Positions 30,570-40,405 of a stretch of 64,000 nucleotides of DNA are shown one piece after another. Each line of letters begins with the position of its first letter. The first letter of the stretch is position 1. Origin of the DNA: a virus; IMG/VR virus record IMGVR_UViG_3300046804_004438, positions 1 through 64,000 of that record; one strand, given 5' to 3'. The position numbers were made by a program, and so were the translations under genes. A model generated the notes under the pieces. The model saw only the letters and a list, made by a program, of their open reading frames with translations. It did no database searches and had not been told where the DNA came from.

Positions 30570-32179
30570 TAAAGATTTACCACCAAAGTTTCTACTTGTA
30601 TGGTTTCCTCTGATTGTTTACTATCAATAATCATCGGCTTACCAAATACTCTGTTACCTACAGGATGCATTACTTGTTTTAATACGTTAATATATTTATC
30701 TAGCGATTTTTCAAGTTGAATTTCATATGAATATTCTTGATAGTAATCACTATCTATCATATACTTGTCTGAGTTGAGGAAGCTTCCTTCATCTGCCCAG
30801 AATCCTTCTTCGTAGCCAATAGCACTAATATCTATTGTCAATTCTGCTGTCTTGAGTTCATCAGCTTCATTGTAGAATACCAATCTTTCACCCTGTGTAT
30901 TAAACCCAAAACCTGATGATGCTAATTCTACACTATTAATAACTCCGTTGGCTGTTGATAGCTCACCAGTTATCACAGCATTGTTTCCCCATATCTTACC
31001 ACTACTATCTAAAATGCCATATCCATGTACTCTTTTTTCAAATACAAAAGACTTAACAGACCCATTGTAATTGTGATCACCTGATGTTGCTGCACCTAAA
31101 GCAGATATGGTACCGATTGTCATGTTAGCATAGGAAAGTGATGTTCCAATAATTGATCCTGAATTTGCAAAATACATCGTAGGCCCGTATGTATTTGCAG
31201 AAATATAGATCCCAGAAAAACTATAGCCATTAGCAAATGTTAGCGGATTAATATTATACGTGAATACAGATGTATTAGCAAGAGATTTTATTTTAAATGT
31301 GGCACCAGTTCCAGTTGAGGCTGTTTTATATGAAACAGATACTGGTGTATCTAAAGCATACCCATATCCACCATCTAACAATTTAAAATTTATATATCCT
31401 TTTGCAGTATCGTTTTGCAAAATAGTACTTACGTTAAACTTAAGACCTTCTCCAGTTGTATTGGATGTGAGAAGTACATCTCCAGGTGCATGATCTTCGG
31501 ATGAGAATATAATAGAAGCACCAGTTGCGGACCCTTTGATAGTAGTAGAATCTAATATATTCATACCATCATATACAATATTCTCACCAATTATAAATGA
31601 TGATCCTGTATTACTTAAAGTTATATCTGATATGTAGAGAACATGAGCAATTTGATAGCCAGTATTTACTTTGGTAGCAGATGTTACATATGCAGAAGCA
31701 CCAGAGGTGGTACCTCTAATAATTTTTTTATTATAGGAATAGTTTAAGCTTCTCTCTTCAACTTCTAAATATGTGTTTCTTTTCCATTTACCATCAGAAG
31801 GTTTTAACATATCTTGCTGAGGAACATATATTTCAGCTTCTAGATTATAGAGAAGTCTAAAAAGTAACTTTAATCCCTCTATAGAACCTTTGGCTCTGTA
31901 TACATCTAAAATATGTTTTTCTAAAAGCTTTTTATTTGCAAGTATGTTTTTAGGAATACCATGCATATACTTCTTGAGAAAATAATCAATGTATTCAGCA
32001 GAAACTTGATCAATGTCAGAATATTCTAACAACCTTCTTGACTTGTAAATAGACCCTTGTTGATCCATCCACTCGTAATAAGCTTTCACAAATTGTATAA
32101 AGTTGTCACCTTCTTCCTGATAGAAAGCTGGAAATTGTTGTCTAACTAATGGAGCAATTTCTTTTAAGTCTACTAGCAT
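30569..32179 (-). CDS. Conserved baseplate protein downstream of gp6 (possible gp7 counterpart)
   Basis: 536 residues. The N-terminal part is helical and well conserved in marine T4-like phages as I recall them: APLVRQQFPAFYQEEG, FVKAYYEWMD, then HILDVYRAKGSIEGLKLLFR. The remainder is beta-rich. The order gp25, gp6, this gene, gp8 puts it where a gp7-type wedge component would be expected, but it is much shorter than T4 gp7 (1032 aa) and I see no direct gp7 motif. One-base overlaps with both neighbours suggest translational coupling. Confidence 0.7.
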   Translation of the reverse strand: MLVDLKEIAPLVRQQFPAFYQEEGDNFIQFVKAYYEWMDQQGSIYKSRRLLEYSDIDQVSAEYIDYFLKKYMHGIPKNILANKKLLEKHILDVYRAKGSIEGLKLLFRLLYNLEAEIYVPQQDMLKPSDGKWKRNTYLEVEERSLNYSYNKKIIRGTTSGASAYVTSATKVNTGYQIAHVLYISDITLSNTGSSFIIGENIVYDGMNILDSTTIKGSATGASIIFSSEDHAPGDVLLTSNTTGEGLKFNVSTILQNDTAKGYINFKLLDGGYGYALDTPVSVSYKTASTGTGATFKIKSLANTSVFTYNINPLTFANGYSFSGIYISANTYGPTMYFANSGSIIGTSLSYANMTIGTISALGAATSGDHNYNGSVKSFVFEKRVHGYGILDSSGKIWGNNAVITGELSTANGVINSVELASSGFGFNTQGERLVFYNEADELKTAELTIDISAIGYEEGFWADEGSFLNSDKYMIDSDYYQEYSYEIQLEKSLDKYINVLKQVMHPVGNRVFGKPMIIDSKQSEETIQVETLVVNL

Positions 32180-33969
32180 TATTGACTAAACACATTTATA
32201 GAAATGAATACTTTGCTATAATCAATTTTTAAGAACTTATTGTTTTGAACAATAATATCATCATTTGTTAATTTAGCATATATGTCAATCGTATTGGTAT
32301 AATCGTAAGGATTCAATTTAAAGATTAGTTCGCCTGTATTATAATTTACTGTACCAATATTATTTTCTAAAAACACCTTTGTAGAATTATTTGATAGGAA
32401 GTAAATTCTTAGATTGCCAATACCATCATCTGTTATTCTTGCAGTATAGGATATACCATTTTTATAGTAAGTAAAGAAGCTAGATTTTACTACCTCATCC
32501 TCACTATCATTATAAGCAATTTGTACTGGTCTGTATATTTGGTTACCAAAACTAAATTTGTAATTATTATCAATTGTTCTAGTAGGAGTAATTTTGTAAA
32601 TTGCTCTTAAAGATGTCTGGTTGCTAATAATAGCATCATCGGAAGAATCTATCATAGAAAGCAATTTAGATTTTCTAATATCATCTCCAAAATTATTAAG
32701 GTGTAAATTATCATAGTTAATTATTTGATTCAATACTTCTGACTTTAACTGCTGAGTACTTTTTGTTGTAAGTGAAGGATCAAACATAACTTCTGATGTA
32801 ATTTCTACAAACAAATATTCTGGGTCTAGTATCACAGGTTCAGTAGTAATACTCTTACCAGTAAGATAATTAATTATTTCACTTTTTAAAACTGATGAAA
32901 TAATGGGTGCATCTCCATATGGAATAGCACTTATAATTACTTTACCAAATTGTGGTGGATCAGCATTTTCACCTCCATAAACATTAACAGTTTTAATCTG
33001 AGGAAACTTTTGAAGAACCAATGTTTGATAATCGTCCGCTGTCACTGCTCTTCCTTGAGTAGCAAAATATTTTGGAGCATTTAAACGTATTGACTCTATA
33101 TCTTCTCTTTCAGATCCATCAATAGCAACAGCATTTGTTGTTACTGTTACGCTATAAAGCCCACCTATACTAGTTGTGGCAGTAAACGAACTGGCTTTAT
33201 TTGCTGAATCGCCATTGGTTGATCTATACTTTACTTTAATAATATTACCATTTGTAAGTGATTTTCCAAATACACCATCTCCAAATGAAACAGCATATTG
33301 ATCTGATACTGCACCATCCACAAAGAATACTTTGGAAGTTGGAGTTAATCCATTGAGAGTATAAACTCTTGAAAATATTGAATTGGTAGAATCAGTAGAT
33401 GAATTTATTACTGTAACTTTAATACTATTTGTATCAACATTGTTAGAACTTAATACAAAATTACTATTGTTAGCAACCGTAAAGTATTCTGTAACAATCT
33501 TACCTTCATAAACATAAACTGGATCACTTACATAATAGCCACCATTATTGTTAATAATGATATCTTGATCTGTAGAGAAGGAATAATTAACACCATCAAC
33601 AACGGTACGTATAGTATAATCTTCCGGAACAATCACATATGAAGGTGTTGCTGTACCAGTATTAATACTAAATGTTACTTGAGCTTTTGCTGATGTTCTA
33701 GAACGAGGAAGATAGTTAAGTTCTTTCGCATGCGAAACTACCGATTGTTTGATACGAGCTGAATCTAAAAACATTTCACTTCCTATCATATTAAGATAGA
33801 AAGAATTCATATATGTATTATATGATAAAATATCTAGCAATGCGCTAAGGTTTGAACCTTCAAAATCATAATCTTGAAATTGAGTTTTACTTTGTAGAAA
33901 CGTTTTAAGATTGCTCTTAATACCATCAAAGCTCAATTCTGATACACTTAAGAACCCTGTATTTGCCAT
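32179..33969 (-). CDS. 6: Baseplate wedge subunit gp6
   Basis: 596 residues. The N-terminal signature is FDGIKSNLKTFLQSK, FEGSNLSALLDILSYNTYMN and SVVSHAKELNYLPRSRTSAK, the classical start of gp6/baseplate-J-like proteins. gp6 forms the inner ring that connects the wedges around the hub in T4. The length is close to T4 gp6 (660 aa). The gene overlaps gp25 by one base, keeping the usual gp25-gp6 pairing. Confidence 0.92.
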   Translation of the reverse strand: MANTGFLSVSELSFDGIKSNLKTFLQSKTQFQDYDFEGSNLSALLDILSYNTYMNSFYLNMIGSEMFLDSARIKQSVVSHAKELNYLPRSRTSAKAQVTFSINTGTATPSYVIVPEDYTIRTVVDGVNYSFSTDQDIIINNNGGYYVSDPVYVYEGKIVTEYFTVANNSNFVLSSNNVDTNSIKVTVINSSTDSTNSIFSRVYTLNGLTPTSKVFFVDGAVSDQYAVSFGDGVFGKSLTNGNIIKVKYRSTNGDSANKASSFTATTSIGGLYSVTVTTNAVAIDGSEREDIESIRLNAPKYFATQGRAVTADDYQTLVLQKFPQIKTVNVYGGENADPPQFGKVIISAIPYGDAPIISSVLKSEIINYLTGKSITTEPVILDPEYLFVEITSEVMFDPSLTTKSTQQLKSEVLNQIINYDNLHLNNFGDDIRKSKLLSMIDSSDDAIISNQTSLRAIYKITPTRTIDNNYKFSFGNQIYRPVQIAYNDSEDEVVKSSFFTYYKNGISYTARITDDGIGNLRIYFLSNNSTKVFLENNIGTVNYNTGELIFKLNPYDYTNTIDIYAKLTNDDIIVQNNKFLKIDYSKVFISINVFSQ

Positions 33970-34358
33970 TATCTTACTCTTCTTAGAACTAGGTCTAATG
34001 TAACTGGTTGAGTACTATTTACTATTGAAAAAACAATAGTTACAGAATAAGAGTTTTCATCTGGCAAAGCTTTTACAGTCACACTGTAGACGTTTGCTCT
34101 AGGTTCATAATTTACAATAGTTTCTCTAATTCTTTCCCTTAAAATAAATTCAGTATCACTACTTATATTCTCAAACAAACTTTGCTTAATTCCAGCGCCA
34201 ATTCTTGGGTTGAAAAACCTCTCATAAGGATCTGTTAAAAGAAGGTTACGTATAGCCCTTTTCACTGCATTCTCGTTGTAGAGAAGCACCAGATCTTGTT
34301 TGATTGGATGAATATCCAAGTTAGTTGGTATATCTGAAAAAATAATGTTTGTTGCCAT
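33969..34358 (-). CDS. 25: Baseplate wedge subunit gp25
   Basis: 129 residues, the usual size for gp25 (132 aa in T4). It has the gp25/W-type features: NENAVKRAIRNLLLTDPYER, FNPRIGAGIKQSLFEN, and the conserved EPR in IVNYEPRANV. gp25 belongs to a lysozyme-like fold family without lytic activity and starts sheath assembly together with gp6 and gp53. It is immediately upstream of gp6. Confidence 0.93.
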   Translation of the reverse strand: MATNIIFSDIPTNLDIHPIKQDLVLLYNENAVKRAIRNLLLTDPYERFFNPRIGAGIKQSLFENISSDTEFILRERIRETIVNYEPRANVYSVTVKALPDENSYSVTIVFSIVNSTQPVTLDLVLRRVR

Positions 34359-34366
34359 AAAATTAT

Positions 34367-35833
34367 TTATAATGCTGATTGAATAGCTCTTAAGTATTGA
34401 GGATTATATCTTTGAATATCGTTTCCAGTTGATGCAGCTAGTCTCCAACCATCAGTAAAAGGGCGAGAACCAAATGGTGAAAATGTCTCTCCAACCATAA
34501 CACCGCTGAAACCTAGCATGAAAGGAATAGCATTATCTGATCTTCTCATTTCTATACTGGATGTAGTTGGAACATTTAAAACGCTGCAAATATTTGTAGT
34601 CATTGTGCTGATATGGCTTCCAAAATATGTGTCAGTTGGAGGTGGTGTTGATGATCCAGTTAACATTCTAGAAACTACAGAAGCCATTGAAATAGCTCCT
34701 CCAAACGAACCAAAGTTTTGCATACCAAAACTAACTACACCACCACCTCCATTTGGAGTACCAAATGCTCCCACTCTTCTGCAGAAGATTTGATCTACAG
34801 CTGGAAGTGCAACCGGTGCTTCACCAAAGAATGATTTACCAGCATAGGTAGGAGGATACAACATAGGATTGTTAGCACGTTTAGAAGTTGCTATTCTAGT
34901 GCCAATAATAACCTCAGAAAGAAATCCACCTATTGCAGATCCCCCAGATGTTGAGAGCAGCATACTAGCAGCAATTCCTCCCAATTGTCCTAAGGATCCT
35001 AAAGCACCACCAAGTGGTGTTTGATCTAAAAGTTTGGTGATTGTTGCAGCTCCAACTATAGTTGCAGCTGATGGTATTGATGTTGCAGGATTTGAAACAG
35101 AAGCTAAAGCAGCAACAGAAGCAGTTCCTCCAGCAACACCAGCATATGTGTTAATTGCTTGACTAATTGTGCTTGTAGATAACCCAGGATAACCTCTTAA
35201 AGATCCACCATAACCCATTTGTTGATGAGATGTTGATATAATAGAAGGTCCTATTACTCCAAGAGCTAATCCTAATTCTGCAGCAGATAATGTATCGCCA
35301 TAGCTACTTTGAGTATAATCACCATACTGAGCAACTTGAGAAAATTGTCCATATCTTTGGTTGACAGATGCAACTCCTTGACTTAAATAACCTACTTTGT
35401 AAATATCTGGTATACCTGTTATTCCAACAACGTTTCTGATATATCTACGATCAGCTAAATCAGGAACACCTATAACATCAGATATGTAAACTAAATCATC
35501 ATAGCTTTCATTAGCAGCTAAGATATAAAAGAAACCTTCTAATGTGTCATATGGAATAACACCATATGTAGCAAGCTCTTGAGATTTTCTTTCTATTGCT
35601 TGTTTTTCTAATGTAGTTAGAATATAATTATTTTGTGTTCGAACATAGTTAGCTGGTGCAGTTTGCGATTTTAAAGAACTAGCTGATCCTGATAATTGAG
35701 CAGCTATATTGACAGCATTATTAAATGTGTCGTTAGATGGCATATGTTCTTGGTTGCCATAAAAACCAGGCTGTCTTAAAATACCTTTTTGTATTAAAGC
35801 AGCTGTGTCTCTATTGATTCTAGTATTAGCCAA
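34367..35833 (-). CDS. Unknown structural protein of the baseplate operon
   Basis: 488 residues, MANTRINRDTAALIQKGIL. Residues about 225-315 form an Ala/Gly/Ser-rich hydrophobic stretch (GGIAASMLLSTSGGSAIGGF), perhaps membrane-active or tightly packed. The C-terminal half ends with GETFSPFGSRPFTDGWRLA. There are no lytic motifs. It overlaps the spike gene start region by eight bases and lies between gp5-type and gp25 genes, so a baseplate or hub-associated role is likely. No T4 name can be given with confidence. Confidence 0.65.
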   Translation of the reverse strand: MANTRINRDTAALIQKGILRQPGFYGNQEHMPSNDTFNNAVNIAAQLSGSASSLKSQTAPANYVRTQNNYILTTLEKQAIERKSQELATYGVIPYDTLEGFFYILAANESYDDLVYISDVIGVPDLADRRYIRNVVGITGIPDIYKVGYLSQGVASVNQRYGQFSQVAQYGDYTQSSYGDTLSAAELGLALGVIGPSIISTSHQQMGYGGSLRGYPGLSTSTISQAINTYAGVAGGTASVAALASVSNPATSIPSAATIVGAATITKLLDQTPLGGALGSLGQLGGIAASMLLSTSGGSAIGGFLSEVIIGTRIATSKRANNPMLYPPTYAGKSFFGEAPVALPAVDQIFCRRVGAFGTPNGGGGVVSFGMQNFGSFGGAISMASVVSRMLTGSSTPPPTDTYFGSHISTMTTNICSVLNVPTTSSIEMRRSDNAIPFMLGFSGVMVGETFSPFGSRPFTDGWRLAASTGNDIQRYNPQYLRAIQSAL

Positions 35834-37637
35834 CTTTTCTACCCTCCAGCGCTGCTACTGCATACGAAAGTTGTAAACCTGCAACTTTACTATGACAATG
35901 AGGGTCTGCACAAGTAAACACTGAACCACCACCTCTTTGTCCAGGTTGTGCTGCTTCAACATGACAATGAATACCACCTTCATCGTTCTTCTCAAGCAAC
36001 ACCTTACTGAACGGCAGATTGTCTCTAACAAATGCAGCTACTTCAGCAGTAAATCCGTAATCAGGTTTATTAGAACATCTTATATCAACAGCTCCACCTT
36101 TACAGTGATTTGACGATGATGCTTTTGGTCTCCACCATGAGGAAATGTAAACTCGTGATCCAAACTTTTCATATAGAGGATCTAGAATATTCCATGCAAC
36201 ATTCTGAGCTTCTGTTAGAATACTCTTTATTTCAGATTGCGGTGCATTGTGAATACCTAGAATGTTACCAACTTTAATGTGTCTAGAAAGAGGTTCGTTA
36301 CTATTGTATATCGATGTTGGAAGTGGAATTCCAGGAGTTTCTGATATACCATTACCATCAGATATACCAGCAGGCCTATCATATATTCCACTTCTTACAG
36401 CTTCTGCAGTTATACCAGTATCGTTTGGATTGTATTTGACTCCAGCACCTTTATTACCAGCAGCATAAGCCTCAGCTTGTGGATTAGGAAAGCCACCTTC
36501 ATTCTTATGAAGTGAGAATTCTTCAGCAGACATTTTAGCCGCATTGAGAGGAAAGTCTGGAGCAACACGAAGAGATGTTATGCTATCAATAATAGTGTTT
36601 GAATCTGGATATTGAGAAAGCTGAGCAGCATTGACATCTGATGCACTATCTACAGATGGTGATCCGCTTGTCTGAATATCGGTAGCAGATCCTTTAATAT
36701 TAATCTTAGCTGATCCCAATAAATCAATAGTTGAAGACGAATGAATGGAAGCAGCGCTTGTAGAAGATAGTTTAGTTGTACCATCAGCCTTAACTGCCAA
36801 ATCATCTTTAGTTGATATCGTCATTGCAGCTTCTGAAAGAACTTCTAATGTATCTTTAGCATTAATACTAACTTTTTCTTTAGCATACATACCAACATTT
36901 TTTTGAGAATTAATCTCAACATTTTTATCTGATCTAATTGTGATTTCTTTACCTGCATCCACTTCTAATGATTGTGGCGTTTGAATTCTCAACTTACCTG
37001 CTGCTGTTAATCTATTATCACCAGCAACCATTGTAGTCATATCTTTGGCTACTTCTGTCATTTTTGTTCCATCAATTGTTTCATCAACAGAACCTCCTAC
37101 AGATGTAATGAGATCTCTAGCAACGTTGATGTTCATAGCACCACCAACATTGATATCAAGATCACCTTCAGACTCAATAGTTACTTTACCATCACCCTTA
37201 AGAACAACATGACCTTTAGCAAATAATGTTAGATCACCGGTAGGAGCAACTACACCAACACCTTTCTTACCTGATGATATTAAATGAATAGATCCATCCG
37301 AGTCAATAACAATTGTAGCCCCACTATGATGTTGGAGAGTAATTGTATCAGAACCAAACGTGTTATCAATTACTACTTTATTTCCAGTTGCAGAAACAAA
37401 TCCTTGAACATCGGTAGCACTACCAATACCACCCATATTACCAGCACCAGGTCCAGTTTGAGTTATAGTTTGATCACTGGTTTGTCCTGGTTTGTCTTTA
37501 ACGTTGACTTCATAATAAGGTGCAGGGTTACCTGTACCAATTAACTGTGGTCCATCGTTTCTTCCAACACCATCACCTTCTCTGTTGGTATATGTTTTAA
37601 CTGATGAGGGATCGTCTGCAAATCTTTCTAATGACAT
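35826..37637 (-). CDS. gp5-type beta-helix spike fused to an M15-type peptidase domain
   Basis: 603 residues. Residues about 90-330 are the repeated beta strands of a gp5C/VgrG-like needle (GDLDINVGGAMNINVARDL, then KEITIRSDKNVEINSQKN). Residues about 460-603 look like a peptidase M15 (D-Ala-D-Ala or L-Ala-D-Glu endopeptidase) domain: SSWWRPK, then SNHCKGGAVDIR giving the His and Asp ligands, and GIHCHVEA giving the last His. The zinc set appears intact. T4 gp5 has its lysozyme before the beta-helix in one polypeptide; here the lysozyme is two genes upstream and a peptidase follows the helix. Role: cell puncturing and peptide cross-link cleavage on entry. Confidence 0.85.
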   Translation of the reverse strand: MSLERFADDPSSVKTYTNREGDGVGRNDGPQLIGTGNPAPYYEVNVKDKPGQTSDQTITQTGPGAGNMGGIGSATDVQGFVSATGNKVVIDNTFGSDTITLQHHSGATIVIDSDGSIHLISSGKKGVGVVAPTGDLTLFAKGHVVLKGDGKVTIESEGDLDINVGGAMNINVARDLITSVGGSVDETIDGTKMTEVAKDMTTMVAGDNRLTAAGKLRIQTPQSLEVDAGKEITIRSDKNVEINSQKNVGMYAKEKVSINAKDTLEVLSEAAMTISTKDDLAVKADGTTKLSSTSAASIHSSSTIDLLGSAKINIKGSATDIQTSGSPSVDSASDVNAAQLSQYPDSNTIIDSITSLRVAPDFPLNAAKMSAEEFSLHKNEGGFPNPQAEAYAAGNKGAGVKYNPNDTGITAEAVRSGIYDRPAGISDGNGISETPGIPLPTSIYNSNEPLSRHIKVGNILGIHNAPQSEIKSILTEAQNVAWNILDPLYEKFGSRVYISSWWRPKASSSNHCKGGAVDIRCSNKPDYGFTAEVAAFVRDNLPFSKVLLEKNDEGGIHCHVEAAQPGQRGGGSVFTCADPHCHSKVAGLQLSYAVAALEGRKVG

Positions 37638-37638
37638 T

Positions 37639-38019
37639 TTAACCGCAATAGTTGTTATATAATGATGTTAGTGCTTGTTCTAGAGTAGTATTGTTACTTG
37701 ATATATTAGCTGTGTTAGTATACTTTGAAAGCTCTCTAATAATTTTATATAGTGTTACTTTTTGTTGTTCTGTTAAAAAGAAATCAGATGCAAAGCTAGT
37801 TGACTTTGCAAACATAAAACTATCTTTGCCACCAATAATTATTATGTTAGCTGATTGTTCGTTTGCTGAAGCACCTTGATAAACAACTCCATCAACATCT
37901 ATAATAAATGTGTAGCTTGAATAATTGTTAAGATTTACATTTTCGTTTCTCAATGTACCTGAAAAATTAAATGTAAGATTTTTACTATAAGCAACTGCTT
38001 CTGCGCTTACTTTATTCAT
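37639..38019 (-). CDS. Amidase/PGRP-fold-like protein, apparently without zinc ligands
   Basis: 126 residues. The arrangement YTFIIDVDGVVYQGA, SANIIIIGG, LTEQQKVTLYKIIRELSKYT and a final ISSN resembles Ami2/PGRP amidases (HxxVxxDGxxYxG ... xHAxxxN ... T.xQ...L..L). The three histidine or cysteine positions that bind zinc in the family are occupied by Tyr/Thr, Ala/Asn and Ser here. It may bind but not cut peptidoglycan. It lies between the lysozyme and needle halves of gp5 and overlaps the lysozyme gene by four bases, so hub location is likely. The fold call is inference. Confidence 0.6.
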   Translation of the reverse strand: MNKVSAEAVAYSKNLTFNFSGTLRNENVNLNNYSSYTFIIDVDGVVYQGASANEQSANIIIIGGKDSFMFAKSTSFASDFFLTEQQKVTLYKIIRELSKYTNTANISSNNTTLEQALTSLYNNYCG

Positions 38020-38948
38020 ACTACATTACCCGTATAAGATGTTGAAGCATATACTTTTTGAGCTTGTTTAAGTTTCTTCAAATAGTATGGAGATGAAGTA
38101 TCAATTCCCCATATACCATTTGACTTAACATAAGAAGCATCGCGTTCATACAATCCAATGCCAACTACAGCATCTTCGATAGTTGTAGAACCAAGAAGTT
38201 TTCCATATGCTCTTTTCTCGGAAGAATGAAATTCATGCCAAATAAAATCAAGTTGTTGTTCTAGTGGAGGAAGTCCACCTTTGGGAGGAATACTACTAGC
38301 ACCACAAAACTTACAAAGATTAATCAATCTATCTCTTTGCCATTGTGCAATCCCAGCAGATACTGCACCTTTGTCGTTTGGATTATATGCCTGTGGACTG
38401 ATGTTTTCACCAGACTCCACTTGAAGGTTTCCAACTATTGCAGCTACAATAATTTTCTTGTCACCAGAAGCAGCACCTTCCTTAGCTATTCTTTCCCAAA
38501 AATAATTATACACCTTACTTTTATTATTGTCACCAGATAATTGAGTTGTAGATGGTGCACTATCTCTATCTGACGGAACATTAACGGGTGCAGAACCTGG
38601 TGAAACATTAGTGCCTTCTGCGCCAGAAGAATTGTTAACAGATCCCTGTCCACCATTAATAACGCCAAGAACAATAGGCTGTTGAGAATCGGCACCATCA
38701 ATAAAGAAACCAAATACCCAGGAACCATTTACAAGATTGTGACTTAGGTTACCTCCTGATGTTTGCCCACCAGTTGTAGGATAAGAAACTATTGCCCAAG
38801 GTAAATCGCCATCAGAAACCTTTTCTATATTTTCAGTAGGATGAATACCAAATATTCTTACACGAACTCTTGCTCTATCATCGCCAACTTGCTTGACAAC
38901 TCCAACCCACCATCTAAATCTATCTCCATAAAAATCATCATATATCAT
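38016..38948 (-). CDS. 5: gp5 N-terminal part: OB domain plus tail lysozyme domain
   Basis: 310 residues. Residues about 10-105 form the gp5/VgrG-type OB-fold (RWWVGVVKQVGDD, VRVRIFGIHP, LPWAIVSYPTT, PIVLGVINGG). After a Ser/Asn/Pro linker, residues about 145-300 match phage tail lysozyme domains: IVAAIVGNLQVESG, whose Glu is the likely catalytic acid, and AGIAQWQRDRLINL. T4 gp5 is made as OB-lysozyme-beta-helix and then cleaved; here the protein ends after the lysozyme, and the beta-helix is a separate gene. It follows gp27, its expected hub partner, with a one-base overlap. Confidence 0.85.
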   Translation of the reverse strand: MIYDDFYGDRFRWWVGVVKQVGDDRARVRVRIFGIHPTENIEKVSDGDLPWAIVSYPTTGGQTSGGNLSHNLVNGSWVFGFFIDGADSQQPIVLGVINGGQGSVNNSSGAEGTNVSPGSAPVNVPSDRDSAPSTTQLSGDNNKSKVYNYFWERIAKEGAASGDKKIIVAAIVGNLQVESGENISPQAYNPNDKGAVSAGIAQWQRDRLINLCKFCGASSIPPKGGLPPLEQQLDFIWHEFHSSEKRAYGKLLGSTTIEDAVVGIGLYERDASYVKSNGIWGIDTSSPYYLKKLKQAQKVYASTSYTGNVV

Positions 38949-40405
38949 TATACCGTTCCTAATATTCTACCATTAGAACCTACGCGAGGTGAAGTGACTG
39001 ATGAGTTGTAATTTGAACGATCTATCAACTTATTAAGATATCCATCCTTATGAACTCTTACAGAAGTAGCAGCTCTATATCCAGTAGATATAACTTGTTT
39101 AACTTCAGCAACAATGAATAAACCAGAAAGATATATGTCTGGATTAACAATATTAAATCCATGATTTTCTGGTATATCAATCCAAATAACTTCACCTGCC
39201 TTTATGTCCATATTAGCAGGAATTGTAAATGATAAATCTATTTGACCTAATGCAAACAATCTTTTTGTTACACGACCAAATTTTTCTCTAAATTGTGGTT
39301 GAGAAACACCATCATCACTATCATAATTTTGATAGTTATTGACTACATATCTAACTCTGTTAGCATATTCTGATAGAGCTTTTTCATTTTTCATACTTTG
39401 AATATATTCAGGTGTATTAAGTGGATACTTACCAAGATTAAATTTAGTATCATTAGTAGGAGATAATTCAGTAACTGTACTTTTGTAAGATTTTTGAAGT
39501 AAACTAATTTCAAACATTTCGTTTTGATAATAACCACCTGCAATTTTTTCAATAGATGAAAAACGTTTATTATTAACAATATTAGTAATTTGTTTTAATT
39601 TTTCATTAATATCTCCAGATGGAATATAATCAGAAATTTCAGTATCTGATCTATAGATATATTTGTTTTCAATAAGTTTATCTATTTTTTCTCTACTACC
39701 AGCAGCTTCTTCAATTAATTTTTGCAGTGTAACAAAATTGAATTGTTCAAAATCTTCATAAAAAATATAGTAGTAGTAATCTTCAGGATATTGAGATACA
39801 GCATATTTTGTAAGCCAAGTTATAGCTTGATAAGGTCTTAGATTGGGAATAACTAGTGTTCTTTTTTTAAGAGTAGGTTCAGTAACAAAAGGCTTAGTTA
39901 TATTAAATTGAATCTGTGTATCTTGAAGAACATATTCAGTAAATACATCATCTGCTATTTTTTCTATATTATCAGAGTATGAGTGTTGTACGTACTTTCT
40001 TGTATTTTGTAGAAAGTATGGACTTATTAAATCTACGACGTACATCATGGATCTAGCTCTATCTCCAACCGAAATATCTCTTACACCTTTAATAATAAAA
40101 TTAATAGTTTTTGGAACTGGAGATAACAAATTAATTGTTTTTGTAGCTTGAGATGATTTAGAATCTATCATATTTTGTTGATATTCAATAGTAACAAATT
40201 CTTCTCCTGTAAATGGATAGTTGACAAATAATCCTATTTGATCATTAATCAAAAGCTCTCCTTTAATTGATGATTCAAATAAAGATTGATATACAGTAAA
40301 TTCAATAAACTGAGCCCTAAGGCTTATCTTATCTTGTCCATTGAATTTTTGAATTGTTACATCGTTAACAGTTAACTTTAACGGATTAAAATCTTGATCA
40401 GCCAT
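38948..40405 (-). CDS. 27: Baseplate hub protein gp27
   Basis: 485 residues (T4 gp27 is 391). It starts with LKLTVNDVTIQKFNGQDK and SLFESSIKGELLINDQIG, followed by PFTGEEFVTIEY, typical of the hub barrel; later LRPYQAITWLTKYAVS and a C-terminal IPANMDIKAGEVIWIDIPE recall the gp27/gpD family. gp27 trimers form the hub cylinder that holds gp5 and the tube. The order gp53-gp27-gp5 fits baseplate function. Confidence 0.82.
   Translation of the reverse strand: MADQDFNPLKLTVNDVTIQKFNGQDKISLRAQFIEFTVYQSLFESSIKGELLINDQIGLFVNYPFTGEEFVTIEYQQNMIDSKSSQATKTINLLSPVPKTINFIIKGVRDISVGDRARSMMYVVDLISPYFLQNTRKYVQHSYSDNIEKIADDVFTEYVLQDTQIQFNITKPFVTEPTLKKRTLVIPNLRPYQAITWLTKYAVSQYPEDYYYYIFYEDFEQFNFVTLQKLIEEAAGSREKIDKLIENKYIYRSDTEISDYIPSGDINEKLKQITNIVNNKRFSSIEKIAGGYYQNEMFEISLLQKSYKSTVTELSPTNDTKFNLGKYPLNTPEYIQSMKNEKALSEYANRVRYVVNNYQNYDSDDGVSQPQFREKFGRVTKRLFALGQIDLSFTIPANMDIKAGEVIWIDIPENHGFNIVNPDIYLSGLFIVAEVKQVISTGYRAATSVRVHKDGYLNKLIDRSNYNSSVTSPRVGSNGRILGTV

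What the first reader, a model, noticed from the sequence alone, without database searches (positions are those of the whole stretch)
35826..38948. Split gp5 spike with three cell-wall domains in separate genes
T4 gp5 is one chain, OB-lysozyme-beta-helix, later cut between lysozyme and helix. Here OB plus tail lysozyme is one gene, an amidase-like gene follows, then the beta-helix fused to an M15-type peptidase. The cut made by proteolysis in T4 is made at gene level, and a second enzyme of different specificity (peptide rather than glycan) is added at the needle. Lysozyme plus endopeptidase suggests tight wall cross-linking in the host.
Basis: partly seen in the sequence, partly recalled or inferred. 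Interest (0 to 1): 0.75.

Follow-up and report, generated by a model that had tools for sequence, protein, structure and literature searches.

The report
Gene-split T4-type tail spike
In this T4-like phage the tail spike that T4 makes as one protein and then cuts is encoded by two genes with a small amidase-shaped but probably inactive protein gene between them, and the needle half carries its own cell-wall peptidase; the arrangement is real and conserved in a whole group of environmental phages, but similar pieces already exist in sequenced phages.

Summary
On the minus strand lie three tightly packed genes: OB fold + Phage_lysozyme2 (38948-38016), a 126-aa gene (38019-37639), and a spike beta-helix + M15 peptidase (37637-35826). 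All 30 IMG/VR contigs that span the locus keep this order, as does the isolate Rhizobium phage RHph_I1_18. All three genes are under purifying selection, so the split is neither an assembly error nor chance. The break falls where T4 gp5 is cleaved, between lysozyme and helix. No second gp5 is in the 110-kb contig, in a 202-kb relative, or in the RHph genome.

Two corrections. The middle gene is not a third enzyme: its predicted fold is amidase-like, but no column of 27 homologues holds a conserved histidine, so the zinc site is gone; I read it as a structural pseudo-enzyme. Nor is the needle peptidase special: Cr30 carries the same OB-lysozyme-helix-M15 set in one chain, M15 recurs in pf16, BUCT-ZZ01 and Melnitz spikes, and gp5 is also split in S-CRM01 and Melnitz. 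'Tight wall cross-linking' is unsupported.

Verdict: a new variant of a known kind, a three-gene cell-puncturing device, moderately interesting. The open question is what the dead amidase does.

The parts
38016..38948 (-). gp5N, 310 aa: gp5-type OB fold (about residues 9-107) plus Phage_lysozyme2 domain (162-274) with invariant Glu178
   Evidence: Pfam E=3.7e-6 and 7.8e-15; PHROG gp5 families to E=4.7e-27; PDB profile match to T4 gp5 OB, E=4e-10; alignment of 24 homologues
37639..38019 (-). middle gene, 126 aa: amidase_2-like fold without zinc ligands; 4-nt ATGA overlap with gp5N and 1 nt from gp5C
   Evidence: Weak Amidase_2; AF2 pLDDT 89.3; Foldseek to phage amidases, probability about 1, TM about 0.5; no conserved His in 27 homologues; dN/dS 0.07-0.20
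35826..37637 (-). gp5C, 603 aa: conserved N-terminal stretch (about 40-80), spike cap and triple beta-helix (about 78-325), linker, M15-type peptidase (about 440-580), Cys-x4-Cys near the C terminus
   Evidence: Pfam DUF2345 E=3.8e-9, Gp5_trimer_C 9e-7, M15_3 0.011; PDB profile match to gp5 spikes, E to 2e-7; Foldseek to VgrG spike and 1lbu; alignment
38948..40405 (-). upstream hub gene, 485 aa, phrog_350 tail protein; the phiM12 homologue is annotated as gp27-like
   Evidence: phrog_350 E=6.9e-57; phiM12 annotation note
34367..35833 (-). downstream gene, 488 aa, unknown family, overlaps the end of gp5C; conserved in the group; occupies the gp5.4 (PAAR) position
   Evidence: No Pfam or NCBIfam hit; homologues in the clade and in RHph_I1_18
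33969..34358 (-). gp25 baseplate wedge subunit (T4-like context)
   Evidence: PF04965 E=1.2e-13; phrog_261 E=8e-43
32179..33969 (-). gp6 baseplate wedge subunit (T4-like context)
   Evidence: phrog_219 E=1.7e-155

Best explanation
This is the T4-type central spike (gp5) made from separate chains instead of one precursor that is cut. Three copies of gp5N sit on the gp27-like hub through their OB fold and hold a lysozyme. Three copies of gp5C form the beta-helical needle and carry an M15 zinc peptidase past the C-terminal end of the helix. The middle protein, apparently descended from an N-acetylmuramoyl-alanine amidase but without its metal site, is most likely a small structural or assembly subunit of the same hub. 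On tail contraction the needle would open the outer membrane; the lysozyme would cut glycan and the peptidase peptide bonds, giving a local hole. Shown by sequence: the genes, domains, conservation, the gene-level split, intact lysozyme and M15 residues, and loss of amidase residues. Inferred: trimer assembly, presence in virions, enzyme activity, and the role of the middle protein.
For: Domains. Conserved three-gene order in 30 spanning contigs and the RHph_I1_18 isolate. ATGA or near-zero spacing at the junctions and dN/dS 0.05-0.20. No second OB/gp5. Catalytic residues kept: E178 in gp5N; H511, D518, H557, H559 in gp5C. Middle protein: amidase fold, no conserved His. T4 precedent for a spike working as cut pieces, (gp27-gp5*-gp5C)3: PMC3004832. 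One-chain counterpart with the same enzymes in Cr30.
Against: No virion proteomics or structure for any member. The gp5C model is poor outside the M15 domain (mean pLDDT 62.6), and no multimer could be modelled. Pfam M15_3 is below its cut-off. The amidase kinship of the middle protein rests on fold and weak profile scores only; the best PDB amidase match is E=0.67.
Confidence: 0.8

Rival explanations
1. The middle protein is not a virion part but an assembly factor: a chaperone or temporary cap that keeps the lysozyme off or guides gp5C onto gp5N, and leaves before maturation.
For: Small, tightly coupled gene between the two parts it could join; conserved without catalytic residues; fibre chaperones are often encoded next to the fibre gene (PMC4576200).
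Against: No direct evidence. Amidase-like domains also occur as built-in parts of one-chain gp5 in Vibrio phages of the SD25/VP-1 type, which favours a structural place in the spike.
Confidence: 0.35
2. The middle protein is an active or differently active wall enzyme, an amidase with a new metal site or a peptidoglycan-binding module.
For: Amidase fold; invariant C125, G63, G64 and Q86; a fold that still could bind muropeptide.
Against: No column with conserved His in 27 homologues. Both stretches that carry the zinc histidines in the SD25 amidase (ITIHTTA, ILGHRDW) have none in this family.
Confidence: 0.15
3. The split is only a reading or assembly artefact of a one-chain gene.
For: The one-chain form exists in Cr30.
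Against: 30 contigs and a complete isolate genome share separate genes with a third conserved gene between them, varied junctions and purifying selection.
Confidence: 0.02

Closest known systems
T4 gp5 (gp27-gp5*-gp5C)3 cell-puncturing device
   Same: OB fold, lysozyme and triple beta-helix in that order; the break lies between lysozyme and helix
   Different: T4 makes one chain and cuts it; GH24 lysozyme instead of Phage_lysozyme2; no M15; no protein between the halves; PAAR gp5.4 tip (no PAAR hit in this contig)
Rhizobium phage RHph_I1_18 EVB91_042/041/040
   Same: Same three genes in the same order; 42% (gp5N), 27% (middle), 30% (gp5C) identity
   Different: Isolate with complete genome; the two halves are both annotated as 'baseplate hub subunit and tail lysozyme', the middle as hypothetical; no paper on it found
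Caulobacter phage Cr30 gp5
   Same: OB, Phage_lysozyme2, helix and M15-like domain in the same order
   Different: One chain of 701 aa; no middle protein
Synechococcus phage S-CRM01 g59/g58 and Methylophilales phage Melnitz genes 154/155
   Same: OB part and beta-helix part in two neighbouring genes; Melnitz helix part carries M15
   Different: No middle gene between them; no Phage_lysozyme2 detected
Evolved VgrG of type VI secretion (VgrG2b)
   Same: Metallopeptidase-like domain fused behind a gp5-type beta-helix (PMC7376260)
   Different: A bacterial effector system with gp27-gp5 in one chain; works like, not a member
RaK2 gp078 and CBB_240 of Rak2-like phages
   Same: Published gp5-like spikes with unusual or several wall enzymes, including a lysozyme at the C-terminal end (PMC3622015, PMC5259590)
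   Different: One chain; no M15; other enzyme families

Membership tests
T4-type central spike gp5 | N-terminal gp5 OB fold | tested here: met
   Pfam Gp5_OB above cut-off; profile match to T4 gp5, E=4e-10
T4-type central spike gp5 | C-terminal triple beta-helix of the gp5/VgrG kind | tested here: met
   DUF2345 above cut-off, Gp5_trimer_C E=9e-7; gp5 and VgrG structures by profile
T4-type central spike gp5 | Lysozyme domain between OB and helix | tested here: met
   Phage_lysozyme2 E=8e-15, of another family than T4's GH24; no GH24 in the contig
T4-type central spike gp5 | All domains in one precursor chain | tested here: not met
   Separate genes with a third between them in 30 contigs and RHph_I1_18
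T4-type central spike gp5 | Place in the T4 baseplate gene order (gp48, gp53, gp5, gp25, gp6) | tested here: met
   gp25 and gp6 by profile directly downstream; the 187- and 301-aa genes upstream sit where RHph_I1_18 has its annotated wedge subunit and tail tube cap
T4-type central spike gp5 | Trimer in the virion hub | not testable with these tools
   No proteomics or multimer modelling
Peptidase M15 | Zn-binding H...D...H motif and fold | tested here: met
   H511, D518, H559 invariant; Foldseek to 1lbu, probability 0.98
Peptidase M15 | Peptidoglycan peptide cleavage | not testable with these tools
   Needs an enzyme assay
Amidase_2 (N-acetylmuramoyl-L-alanine amidase) | Amidase_2 fold | tested here: inconclusive
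   Viral amidases at TM about 0.5, probability about 1; PDB AmiD only E=0.67; Pfam below cut-off
Amidase_2 (N-acetylmuramoyl-L-alanine amidase) | Zinc-binding histidines | tested here: not met
   No conserved His column in 27 homologues; 13 have no His at all, the window protein among them

The most novel reading that the evidence does not exclude
A lasting three-gene cell-puncturing device in which a catalytically dead amidase has become a structural coupling subunit between the lysozyme ring and the peptidase needle, taking over the part that the cleaved linker plays in T4. It would be a spike held together only by contacts between separately made chains.
Probability: 0.35. Interest if true: 0.55.

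Novelty: new variant of a known kind. Interest (0 to 1): 0.42.

Why it matters
T4 gp5 needs a precise cut, and its uncut linker and helix hold the lysozyme back (PMC3004832). A phage group that never makes the joined chain offers a natural test of why T4 joins and cuts at all, and of what registers three lysozyme chains with three needle chains. It also shows that T4-like phages outside the enterics mix wall enzymes freely on the spike: Phage_lysozyme2, GH19, CHAP, amidase, M15, or none.

Tried and rejected
Frameshift fusion of gp5N and the middle gene: the junctions vary (4-nt ATGA overlap in most, 1-nt TAATG in some), as for stop-start coupling. Second gp5 or GH24 lysozyme elsewhere in the contig: none. 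PAAR tip protein: none in the contig. A claim that gene-level splitting arose independently in S-CRM01: the hub tree places it outside the 100/100 group of the window clade plus RHph, but the test does not reject one clade (p-AU 0.178), so it stays open. Sequence-only PDB search with the middle family and with the M15 part gave only chance-level hits. Short OB-only-looking genes in L049/L058 proved to be one-chain minimal spikes. Literature: no paper found that describes a gp5 split of this kind; the library is limited to open licences.

Full report
What is there. The window is part of a 110,386-base virus record with T4-like baseplate genes. On the minus strand, in transcription order, lie a gp27-like hub gene of phrog_350 (40405-38948), gp5N (38948-38016, 310 aa), a middle gene (38019-37639, 126 aa), gp5C (37637-35826, 603 aa), an unknown 488-aa gene, gp25, gp6 and a wedge gene. 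gp5N carries a gp5 OB fold and a Phage_lysozyme2 domain. gp5C carries the spike beta-helix and an M15-type domain. The coordinates in the finding are right.

Is it more than chance. Three scans of IMG/VR gave 30 contigs that hold gp5N, middle gene and gp5C together; all 30 have them in this order, with the same neighbours where the contig reaches that far (contigs counted from the table, some nearly identical to each other). The isolate Rhizobium phage RHph_I1_18 has the same three genes, with gp5N at 42%, the middle protein at 27% and gp5C at 30% identity to the window. Start and stop codons overlap by 4 nt (ATGA) at the first junction in most members and lie within a few nt at the second. 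Pairwise dN/dS is 0.05-0.20 in all three genes, the middle one included. The split is real and old within this group.

Where the break lies. In T4 one gp5 chain is cut between Ser351 and Ala352, in the linker between lysozyme and helix; both pieces stay in the particle as (gp27-gp5*-gp5C)3, and linker and helix hold the lysozyme down until they part (PMC3004832). The gene break here is at the same place between domains. gp5C starts with about 75 residues that are partly very conserved (P40, Y42, E43, P50, T61-G62-P63 and more) before the spike cap; the model is poor there. I infer, without proof, that this stretch docks gp5C to gp5N or to the middle protein.

The enzymes. gp5N keeps Glu178 in all 24 homologues, the likely catalytic glutamate of the lysozyme. 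gp5C keeps H511, D518, H557 and H559 in all 21; the seven-residue H-to-D spacing and the HxH fit, from my own knowledge, the zinc site of the Streptomyces albus DD-peptidase, which is also what Foldseek finds (1lbu, probability 0.98). H557 is missing in Cr30, pf16 and Melnitz, H559 is kept. So glycan and peptide cutting on one spike is the plain reading, but no activity has been shown.

The middle protein. AlphaFold2 gives a confident model (pLDDT 89.3, pTM 0.82). The closest viral model is a 125-aa uncharacterised phage protein (38% identity, TM 0.94); after it come phage N-acetylmuramoyl-alanine amidases at TM about 0.5 and the gp5 of Vibrio phage VP-1. A gp5 of the same length in Vibrio phage SD25 carries a clear Amidase_2 domain. 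In the SD25 domain the zinc histidines sit in ITIHTTA and ILGHRDW (assignment from my knowledge of the family); in the middle family no column has a conserved histidine, 13 of 27 members have none at all, and the best alignable part is the core VVLVGG / IIIIGG and the following helix. I therefore read it as a pseudo-enzyme kept for a structural reason.

How usual are the pieces. One-chain forms: Cr30 gp5 is OB, Phage_lysozyme2, helix, M15; pf16 is OB, helix, M15; BUCT-ZZ01 is OB, GH19, helix, M15; Ochrobactrum phage OC has M15 and Phage_lysozyme2 behind the OB fold. Two-gene forms: Melnitz (OB gene, then helix-M15 gene) and S-CRM01 (OB gene g59, then helix gene g58). Other layouts: phiM12 has a separate M15 gene after gp5; Vibrio phage 1.244.A has M15 on a PAAR protein; Agrobacterium phage Atu_ph04 has an OB-CHAP gene. 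KVP40 gp5 was long ago annotated as lacking the lysozyme domain, and most of the distant contigs here are plain OB-helix chains. The peptidase on the needle is therefore a recurring module, not a mark of the split. Published spikes with odd enzyme sets exist too (RaK2, CBB), the hub of cyanophage A-1(L) carries lysozyme, endoglucanase and peptidase domains (PMC10966104), and a metallopeptidase-like domain behind the helix is known from evolved VgrG2b.

Descent. A tree of the hub gene puts the window clade and RHph_I1_18 together at 100/100. S-CRM01 falls outside but one common clade of the split forms is not rejected (p-AU 0.178). One or more origins of the split are possible; Melnitz was not in the tree because its hub gene was not next to gp5.

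Second gp5. The contig has one OB match, one spike gene, one Phage_lysozyme2 and no GH24 lysozyme. The 202-kb relative G001 has one OB gene. The Pfam OB model gives no match in RHph_I1_18, although my profile finds its OB clearly in EVB91_042; so absence of a second one there rests on a weak model.

Mechanism. Best reading: gp5N trimer on the hub, gp5C trimer as needle with M15 beyond the helix, middle protein as a third hub or assembly part; contraction drives the needle through the outer membrane, then lysozyme and peptidase open the wall locally. Sequence shows the parts and their conservation; assembly, copy number, virion presence and activities are inferred.

Verdict. Observation confirmed; interpretation partly right. 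The case is a new variant of the T4-type spike. What would lift it is proof that the dead amidase holds the two halves together.

Noticed in passing
34367-35833 (-): 488-aa protein of unknown family right after gp5C, at the gp5.4/PAAR position, with a long Gly/Ala-rich hydrophobic middle part; conserved in the clade and in RHph_I1_18 (395 aa). It may be a tip or membrane-active protein.
   Followed up: partly
35826-35930 (-): gp5C ends behind the M15 domain with an invariant TC-x-D-x-x-C motif (C576, C581), perhaps a disulfide or small metal site.
   Followed up: no
L107:3959-7002 (Melnitz): Two adjacent genes: OB plus a VanY/M15-like stretch, then part of an OB, helix and another M15; possibly a duplicated and split gp5.
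   Followed up: partly
L108:5340-6329 and Pseudomonas phages Aura/PA5oct: M15 peptidase fused to a PAAR tip protein in several T4-like or jumbo phages, so the same enzyme sits on either needle or tip.
   Followed up: partly
L119:4450-5325 (Agrobacterium phage Atu_ph04): Stand-alone OB plus CHAP gene labelled tail lysozyme; no helix was found in the stretch read, so it may be another split spike.
   Followed up: partly
L106:5056-5487 (pf16): DUF5675 protein (E=1e-30) directly after the OB-helix-M15 gp5.
   Followed up: no
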